Part shown: in pieces, positions 24,196 to 25,312 of the stretch
Layout: every line of letters starts with the position of its first letter
How positions within the stretch are numbered: position 1 is the first letter of the stretch
Assembly (NCBI GenBank): GCA_002722055.1
Contig: PBKD01000005.1
Location: forward strand, 62,001-126,000
Length of the DNA: 64,000 bases
From: Rhodospirillaceae bacterium
GTDB taxonomy: Bacteria; Pseudomonadota; Alphaproteobacteria; SHVP01
Reading direction: 5' to 3'
The notes under the pieces: model-generated
What the model was told of the DNA's origin: nothing
The model's database searches: none
Seen by the model: the letters and a program-made list of their open reading frames with translations, nothing else
Program-made: the position numbers and the translations under genes

Positions 24196-25027
24196 CTATT
24201 TTATCAAATTAGGTGAGGGGTAAATATCATCAAATTTCGCATTTCTTTTTTGAATTTTAGCGCTAATAGCCTCATAGAAATCATCAGATTGAAGCATATT
24301 AGAATTCCATAATGCTACATAGTCCAAACTATCATGAATACTATGATCTAAACTATATTTTATTATTTTTTTAGTACTAGAAACAGCTAAGGGCGATTTA
24401 TATGAAATATCCCTGGCAATTTTATACACGCTATTTATAAGTTGATCTTTATCAGTGTAAATTTCATTAAGTAAACCAGATTTTAGAGCTTTTTCAGAGT
24501 ACATTTTCTTTCTGTGAAAGCTAATTCCTTTATTAATCCTAACGGAATTAAATTTGGAAGTCTTTGAAGCGTACCTACATCAGCTACCATACCAATATTC
24601 ACTTCATGTATTGAAAAAAATGAGTCAGTTGTTCAATACCTGATATCACAAGCAGAAATTAAATCTACTGCACCTCCTATACAAGCGCCATGTATGGCTA
24701 CTATTACTGGTATTCTTGAGTTTTCTATTACATTAAAACTTTTTTGAAGTTCTTTAATTATTTTTCTAATATTTTCAGCTTTACGGCCATATCTTTGCCT
24801 TCTGTTAAACCTAAAGATGAGAATTCATCTAAATCAATTCCTGAGGAAAAATGTTTACCTTCGGCGTTTATTATCGCAACTCGTGCATTACTATTTTCTA
24901 TTTTATTGAATACTTCTATTATTTCTTTCCAAAAAATTGGTATCATAGAGTTATATTTATTAGGTTGACTTAAGGTAACCAAAGCAATTTTTTCTGAAAT
25001 CTCAAGTTTTAAACTTTTGTAATACAT
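24196..25027 (-). pseudogene. Decayed enoyl-CoA hydratase/isomerase (dienoyl-CoA isomerase type)
   Basis: Remains of a crotonase-fold gene reading from an ATG at 25027 down to a stop at 24196. Concatenated frames give the oxyanion-hole block KHFSSGIDLDEF, then IHGACIGGAVDLISACDIRY, then VADVGTLQRLPNLIP and ELAFT, ending KALKSGLLNEIY. The ACDIRY and DVGTLQRLP signatures fit delta(3,5)-delta(2,4)-dienoyl-CoA isomerase. Three lesions are visible: a frameshift near 24780-24784 (one base lost after the codons for AVK), an in-frame TGA at 24633-24635 right after DIRY where the family has Cys, and a second one-base loss near 24504-24514. Three independent hits make function unlikely. Confidence 0.9.
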
Positions 25028-25123: not shown

Positions 25124-25129
25124 TATAAT
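25124..25129 (+). promoter_or_regulatory. -10 element of the structured leader/RNA
   Basis: A perfect TATAAT at 25124-25129 lies in very AT-rich DNA, with a weak TCTTTA 17 bp upstream. The predicted transcript would start near 25136, just before the extended Shine-Dalgarno sequence. Confidence 0.4.
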
Positions 25130-25166
25130 ATATTCATATCTTTAACAACCGAAAGGAGGTGATCCA

Positions 25167-25235
25167 ATGTCTAGTGATTCGGAACATTGTCGATCAGCTT
25201 TGATGTTCGTAAAAATTAAAGGATATAACTTATAA
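25167..25235 (+). CDS. 22-codon ORF behind an extended Shine-Dalgarno sequence
   Basis: An ATG at 25167 sits 7 nt after the GGAGG core of a 14-nt Shine-Dalgarno sequence, ideal spacing for initiation. The peptide starts MSSDSEHCRSAL and ends KIKGYNL, with one Cys and no similarity I know. Codons 5-15 overlap helix 1 and its pseudoknot-forming loop, and the stop codon lies in helix 2, so translation would unfold exactly the regulatory helices. It may be a leader peptide for an attenuator acting on arsC, or the ORF may only serve to bind 30S subunits. It was not found by a normal length cut-off. Confidence 0.45.
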   Translation: MSSDSEHCRSALMFVKIKGYNL

Positions 25236-25285
25236 TATAGGTTATATTTTATGAAATTAGGGCTGATCGTATAGCCCAATCACGG

Positions 25286-25312
25286 AAAGGCGGCAAATGT
25301 CGCCTTTCTTCT
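25286..25312 (+). terminator. Intrinsic terminator of the structured RNA, before arsC
   Basis: AAAGGCGGC (25286-25294) pairs with GTCGCCTTT (25299-25307) around an AAAT loop: nine pairs including one G-U, followed by CTTCT. The stem is strong for this genome; the U-tract is interrupted. It lies between the short ORF and arsC, so it could terminate the RNA or act as an attenuator for arsC. Confidence 0.65.

What the first reader, a model, noticed from the sequence alone, without database searches (positions are those of the whole stretch)
25124..25312. Compact RNA with a perfect 14-nt anti-16S sequence, 22-codon ORF and a competing pseudoknot
AAAGGAGGTGATCC at 25152-25165 is an exact complement of the 16S rRNA 3' tail (GGATCACCTCCTTT), far longer than a normal Shine-Dalgarno. 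It feeds a 22-codon ORF whose codons cover helix 1. The helix-1 loop CGATCAGC (25191-25198) can pair with GCTGATCG (25262-25269), which is otherwise part of a GGGCT/AGCCC hairpin. A -10 box and an intrinsic terminator bound the unit, and arsC begins 25 bp later. This looks like a ribosome-driven switch or attenuator, or a small RNA that binds 30S subunits. I know of no family that matches, but I cannot search.
Basis: partly seen in the sequence, partly recalled or inferred. Interest (0 to 1): 0.85.

Follow-up and report, generated by a model that had tools for sequence, protein, structure and literature searches.

The report
Small RNA with Shine-Dalgarno switch
This is a small RNA, spread widely through one class of bacteria, that carries an unusually perfect ribosome-landing site, a tiny reading frame, and a built-in copy of the ribosome's own matching sequence, and these appear to open and close the landing site as the RNA is being made.

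Summary
It is a divergent, full-length homologue of Rfam RF01867 (CC2171, an alphaproteobacterial sRNA of unknown function): 47.8 bits, E 6.8e-9, below the curated cut-off of 75. I compared 239 homologues. All share the 14-nt anti-16S Shine-Dalgarno (SD), a start codon and a short frame. The frame has 14-36 codons in 96% of sequence clusters, against 25-32% in the other frames; the peptide is nearly neutral (pN/pS 0.79). Three pairings score better with their own partner than with swapped partners: P1 (codons 2-5 with the segment before the terminator), P2 (frame with post-stop segment) and a new one, P0. In P0 the SD and start codon pair with a mimic of the 16S 3' end inside the frame. Predicted folding closes the SD while the RNA is nascent and opens it when P2 forms; across 101 clusters both shifts exceed shuffled controls. 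There is no conserved downstream gene, so an arsC attenuator is unlikely. It works like the metastable SD hairpins of AapA3 toxin mRNA, but the peptide is not toxin-like. What the device does for the cell is untested.

The parts
25124..25129 (+). -10-like TATAAT; predicted start of transcription about 25136
   Evidence: sequence; promoter-like pairs upstream of homologues in 39 of 100 clusters vs 5.4 after shuffling
25144..25149 (+). AACAAC leader, conserved 5' of the SD in the family
   Evidence: AAC within 12 nt upstream of the SD block in 95 of 100 clusters
25152..25165 (+). extended Shine-Dalgarno, 14 nt complementary to the 16S rRNA 3' tail
   Evidence: shared by all homologues
25167..25235 (+). 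22-codon reading frame, MSSDSEHCRSALMFVKIKGYNL
   Evidence: frame-specific length constraint across 126 clusters
25174..25179 (+). P1 5' arm GTGATT (codons 3-5)
   Evidence: P1 own vs swapped partners z = -8.8; 43 of 101 clusters with >=6 Watson-Crick pairs vs 14.9 swapped; also in the Rfam model
25278..25283 (+). P1 3' arm AATCAC, just 5' of the terminator hairpin
25184..25202 (+). in-frame mimic of the 16S 3' end (ACATTGTCGATCAGCTTTG): pairs with SD + start codon (P0)
   Evidence: own SD x frame duplex -12.6 kcal/mol, 0 of 200 shuffles as good; family test z = -8.1; weaker when the whole RNA is searched, z = -1.3
25187..25212 (+). P2 5' arm, overlapping the mimic
   Evidence: minimum-energy fold; family test frame x post-stop segment z = -7.7
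25249..25274 (+). P2 3' arm; contains GCTGATCG (25262-25269), the competitor of the SD for the mimic
25286..25307 (+). terminator-like hairpin AAAGGCGGCAAATGTCGCCTTT
   Evidence: not scored by the consensus scan; hairpins followed by T-rich tails in 173 of 229 homologues

Best explanation
A free-standing small messenger RNA of the RF01867/CC2171 kind, about 170-175 nt long, whose ribosome-binding site is controlled by a fold that changes during transcription. While the RNA is being made, the reading frame emerges first, and its 16S-3'-end mimic pairs with the perfect SD and the start codon (P0), hiding them from 30S subunits. When the segment after the stop codon emerges it captures the mimic (P2) and releases SD and start codon, and the 3' end pairs with codons 2-5 (P1). 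The finished RNA therefore shows an open 14-nt anti-16S sequence followed at once by structure. A ribosome that translates the 18-26 codons must open P1 and P2, and at the stop codon it would sit over or beside the mimic. Shown: homology, frame-length constraint, own-partner preference of P0, P1 and P2, and predicted nascent-closed, full-length-open behaviour beyond shuffles. Inferred: that the RNA is made and translated in this organism, that the folds occur in cells, and that translation rather than the peptide is the working part.
For: Full-length match to RF01867. RF01867 matches in 105 of 387 genomes of the class. The motif occurs in 43 genomes of the phylum sample, all in the same class, and in none of the genomes from other classes; the reversed-pattern control found none there. 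The frame has 14-36 codons in 96% of 126 clusters vs 32% and 25% in frames +1 and +2; pN/pS 0.79 over 56 pairs. Own vs swapped partners over 101 clusters: SD x frame z = -8.1, P1 z = -8.8, P2 z = -7.7. One clade's GGAGCARCCTC motif is read in all three frames (EQP, SNL, GAT), so the constraint is on the RNA. The mimic centre lies a median 18.5 nt 5' of the stop codon. SD-core unpaired probability: nascent 0.26 vs 0.37 with shuffled frame (p = 1.5e-9); full length 0.38 vs 0.26 with shuffled post-stop segment (p = 3e-9); window 0.15 to 0.54, start codon 0.01 to 0.81. Step-by-step fold of the window.
Against: All structural evidence is predicted. Clusters are not fully independent by descent; the complement control for the spacer-only test also reached z = -3.5, although the reversed control did not. 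In the window, P0 is weak when the whole RNA is searched (z = -1.3). A Rhodobacterales-like 18-codon clade behaves the other way round, open when nascent and closed at full length. Overlap of the P2 5' arm with the mimic is no greater than random placement in the duplex-based test (0.84 vs 0.88), because the P2 duplexes are long. The strong SD and start codon were part of the search pattern, so their conservation is partly ascertainment.
Confidence: 0.62

Rival explanations
1. The RNA is a decoy or sensor of free 30S subunits: its 14-nt anti-16S sequence captures the 16S tail and the in-frame mimic sets the threshold, so the amount of translated or bound RNA reports ribosome supply.
For: Family-wide retention of a complement far longer than a usual SD; presence in the same RNA of both a complement and a mimic of the 16S tail; SD exposed in the predicted full-length fold.
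Against: No binding, abundance or phenotype data; the frame-length constraint shows that translation matters, not only binding.
Confidence: 0.22
2. An ordinary base-pairing sRNA (as Rfam's label suggests) that acts in trans on mRNAs; the frame is incidental.
For: Free-standing unit with its own promoter-like and terminator-like ends; named as a Caulobacter sRNA by Rfam and predicted in Mesorhizobium huakuii (PMC5596092).
Against: Frame 0 alone has a conserved length, and an ATG, GTG or TTG start follows the SD in 125 of 126 clusters (although the start is part of the search pattern).
Confidence: 0.15
3. A small mRNA whose peptide is the product; the long SD simply gives strong translation.
For: Conserved frame; two groups (the Azospirillum-type L063, L066, L127, L206, L244, L258, and L123, L124) carry longer frames with signal-peptide-like sequence.
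Against: Peptides are not alignable between clades and pN/pS is 0.79; codons 2-5 follow the P1 helix, and the 3' codons follow the mimic, in three frames.
Confidence: 0.12
4. A cis attenuator of the downstream arsC-like gene.
For: arsC starts 29 nt after the terminator-like hairpin and has no predicted promoter of its own nearby.
Against: Downstream genes differ between genomes; no same-strand downstream family is shared by more than 9 of 239 loci; no alternative antiterminator found.
Confidence: 0.04
5. A type I toxin mRNA of the hok/AapA kind.
For: Same logic: SD-sequestering structure inside the frame during transcription plus a 5'-3' long-distance helix.
Against: Peptides are hydrophilic or neutral (mean GRAVY 0.05, window -0.17; a hydrophobic 17-aa stretch in 1 of 101 clusters); no antisense promoter found in the unit.
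Confidence: 0.03

Closest known systems
Rfam RF01867 (CC2171), alphaproteobacterial sRNA of unknown function
   Same: End-to-end alignment (model 1-159), GAAAGGAGGUGAUCCA block, start region, P1 helix, terminator hairpin
   Different: 47.8 bits, below the 75-bit cut-off; P1 has a different sequence (GTGATT/AATCAC instead of CATTGTC/GACAATG). The Rfam structure contains neither the reading frame nor the SD-mimic pairing P0
AapA3 and hok type I toxin mRNAs (Helicobacter, plasmid R1)
   Same: Transient SD-sequestering hairpin partly encoded inside a short frame, then a long-distance 5'-3' rearrangement in the complete RNA (AapA3: PMC6733600; hok from general knowledge)
   Different: No hydrophobic peptide and no antisense RNA seen; in most clades the full-length RNA is predicted to open, not close, the SD
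Leader-peptide attenuators (trpL, rnTrpL/peTrpL of Sinorhizobium)
   Same: Short frame whose translation would decide between exclusive RNA folds; the RNA is released as a small transcript
   Different: No conserved downstream operon, no run of one regulatory codon, no antiterminator; depends on a very long SD instead of a leaderless start
Extended SD leaders (Staphylococcus aureus, PMC13009471)
   Same: SD pairing with 16S beyond the usual 4-6 nt
   Different: Here combined with a 16S-tail mimic in the same RNA

Membership tests
RF01867 (CC2171) | score at or above the curated gathering cut-off (75 bits) | tested here: not met
   47.8 bits, E 6.8e-9. Only 14 of the 105 genomes with a match in the class reach the cut-off, so I call it a divergent homologue rather than a certified member
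RF01867 (CC2171) | full-length match with shared SD block, P1 and terminator hairpin | tested here: met
   model 1-159 of 159; P1 partner test
RF01867 (CC2171) | common descent shown by shared gene neighbours | tested here: inconclusive
   same-family loci L011 and L024 share a downstream convergent acyl-CoA-dehydrogenase-like gene with Caulobacterales loci L193, L200, L226, L247 (the gene name is my reading of the sequence, not a family search); the window itself does not share it
RF01867 (CC2171) | expressed as a small RNA | not testable with these tools
   no transcript data for this genome
Type I toxin mRNA (AapA/hok) | hydrophobic membrane peptide | tested here: not met
Type I toxin mRNA (AapA/hok) | SD-sequestering metastable structure inside the frame | tested here: met
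   predicted only
Type I toxin mRNA (AapA/hok) | antisense antitoxin RNA | tested here: inconclusive
   only a weak promoter-like site on the minus strand, at 24946-24918, outside the unit
Leader-peptide attenuator | conserved downstream operon | tested here: not met
Leader-peptide attenuator | mutually exclusive terminator and antiterminator | tested here: not met
   the terminator hairpin pairs with itself in the predicted complete folds

The most novel reading that the evidence does not exclude
RF01867 RNAs are a class-wide ribosome gauge: one small RNA that holds both a perfect complement and a mimic of the 16S rRNA 3' end, so that free 30S subunits and the RNA's own mimic compete for the same site and the outcome sets RNA fate or a trans-acting function.
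Probability: 0.2. Interest if true: 0.88.

Novelty: new variant of a known kind. Interest (0 to 1): 0.62.

Why it matters
RF01867 has been listed as an sRNA without a function. The comparison here suggests that the whole family is translated, or at least initiates translation, and that its ribosome site is gated by a copy of the ribosome's own sequence. That gives a concrete, testable role to an RNA found in about a quarter of the alphaproteobacterial genomes sampled, and it offers a natural case of SD timing during transcription outside toxin genes.

Tried and rejected
MAFFT plus RNAalifold on 64 cluster representatives gave no useful consensus because the middle is too variable in length; I used own-versus-swapped partner tests instead. 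An arsC attenuator was rejected for lack of synteny. Type I toxin was rejected on hydropathy. Phage origin: no match among phage records. A compensatory change between the window and its closest relative in the distal P2 hairpin looked promising but turned out to be a shift of register, so it is not claimed. 16S in the own genome: absent from the assembly. Literature: no paper found describing the frame or the mimic; the anti-SD loops of Bartonella BbsR14 (PMC7717549) are a different thing. Overlap of P2 with the mimic beyond chance was not shown by the duplex test.

Full report
What is there. The 14-mer AAAGGAGGTGATCC (25152-25165) is exact and unique in the window; all other matches in 64 kb have three mismatches. 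It is followed by a 22-codon frame (25167-25235), a long hairpin region, a terminator-like hairpin (25286-25307) and an arsC-family gene (PF03960) from 25337. The 180-nt RNA is far more stable than shuffled sequence (z = -6.4). The consensus terminator scan did not score the hairpin, because the T-run is weak. No 16S gene is in this assembly, so complementarity to its own 16S tail is taken from the general conservation of that tail.

Which family. A search at Rfam's curated thresholds finds only a tRNA in the window. A permissive search of the region finds RF01867, CC2171, end to end (model 1-159), 47.8 bits, E 6.8e-9. The cut-off is 75 bits, but only 14 of the 105 genomes with a match in a class sample of 387 reach it, so the cut-off is strict for this family. 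I therefore call the element a divergent homologue of RF01867. A motif search finds the SD plus start block in 93 of 385 genomes of the class. In a phylum-wide sample it occurs in 43 of 398 genomes, all of them in the same class, none elsewhere. Named carriers include Sphingomonas, Novosphingobium, Bosea, Ancylobacter, Methylobacterium, Bradyrhizobium, Azospirillum, Rhodobacteraceae, Roseococcus, Brevundimonas and Phenylobacterium.

The frame is real in the sense of selection. I collected 239 homologues. Over 126 sequence clusters the frame that starts at the NTG after the SD has 14-36 codons in 96%, never fewer than 14, and a median of 24.5; the other two frames fall in that range in 32% and 25%. 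The peptide itself changes almost freely: pN/pS is 0.79 over 56 close pairs, and peptides from different clades do not resemble each other. Conservation of start and SD is partly built into the search, but conservation of length is not.

Three pairings. P1 joins codons 2-5 to the segment just before the terminator: CATTGTC/GACAATG in most, CATGAAT/ATTCATG, ATGAGATT/AATCTCAT and, in the window, GTGATT/AATCAC. P1 is in the Rfam structure. P2 joins the frame to the segment after the stop codon. P0 is new: a stretch inside the frame resembles the 16S 3' end and pairs with the SD and start codon of the same RNA, for example CTGGATCntcGCCTCC opposite GGAGGTGATCCAG, CAGGATC opposite GATCCTG, CGGGATC opposite GATCCCG. 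To test these without an alignment I compared each arm with its own partner and with partners swapped between 101 clusters: P0 z = -8.1, P1 z = -8.8, P2 z = -7.7; the reversed controls were -2.5 or weaker. For the spacer alone the complement control reached -3.5, so descent and the palindrome GATC inflate that sub-test. A smaller earlier set gave z = -6.4 for P0. In one clade the mimic core GGAGCARCCTC is read in three different frames, as EQP, SNL or GAT, so selection acts on the RNA.

The switch. In the window, predicted folds of growing transcripts show the SD paired with the in-frame mimic (25184-25202) from 60 to 120 nt; by 140 nt the mimic is taken by GCTGATCG (25262-25269) in P2, and from 150 nt P1 forms. 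Over 101 clusters the SD core is less accessible in the nascent RNA (0.26 unpaired) than with a shuffled frame (0.37, p = 1.5e-9). It is more accessible in the full RNA (0.38) than with a shuffled post-stop segment (0.26, p = 3e-9). The start codon goes from 0.28 to 0.50 unpaired; in the window, SD 0.15 to 0.54 and start codon 0.01 to 0.81. The mimic sits a median 18.5 nt upstream of the stop codon, where a terminating ribosome would cover it. A Rhodobacterales-like clade with 18-codon frames has its 16S-like stretch after the stop codon (CACCTCCTTA) and shows the opposite order, open then closed.

What it is not. No same-strand downstream gene is shared by more than 9 of the 239 loci, so the arsC neighbour is local and an attenuator of it is unlikely. 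The peptides are not hydrophobic, so a type I toxin is unlikely, although the SD logic is close to that shown for AapA3 (PMC6733600). No match exists among phage records.

How sure. Homology to RF01867, the length constraint on the frame and P1 are well supported. P0 and P2 as alternating states are supported statistically but only by predicted energies, with clusters that share ancestry; in the window alone P0 is modest when the whole RNA is scanned (z = -1.3). That the RNA is transcribed and translated here, and what the cell gains from it, is inference. My best reading is a small mRNA whose ribosome site is timed by folding; a 30S gauge or decoy is the most interesting reading not excluded.

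Noticed in passing
window 24196-25027 (minus strand): Enoyl-CoA hydratase (PF00378) broken into two ORFs in different frames (24196-24504 and 24758-25027): pseudogene or assembly frameshift.
   Followed up: partly
L063, L066, L127, L206, L244, L258 (the last three Azospirillum); L123, L124: Copies keep the long SD and NTG-TCT start, and some keep P1, but the frame grows to 55-59 codons with a signal-peptide-like sequence (MSHGASPVVAALFGLAALLTAGIANA...), unannotated in most plasmid records: an RNA element that seems to have become a secreted small-protein gene, or the reverse.
   Followed up: partly
L105, L106, L132, L148, L163, L267: 18-codon clade (VSRxxLExxVGT) with an anti-SD such as CACCTCCTTA after the stop codon; in the five of these tested (all but L163) the predicted SD accessibility of the complete RNA is low, and in most of them it is inverted, open when nascent and closed when complete.
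   Followed up: partly
G021 (L009 and L026), G257, G373: Some genomes carry two or three divergent copies of the RNA.
   Followed up: no
L011, L024 (same family as the window) and L193, L200, L226, L247 (Caulobacterales): A convergent acyl-CoA-dehydrogenase-like gene lies downstream in both groups, which points to vertical descent of the RNA.
   Followed up: partly
G000 and five related assemblies: No 16S rRNA gene is found in any of them, although G000 is about 99% complete.
   Followed up: partly
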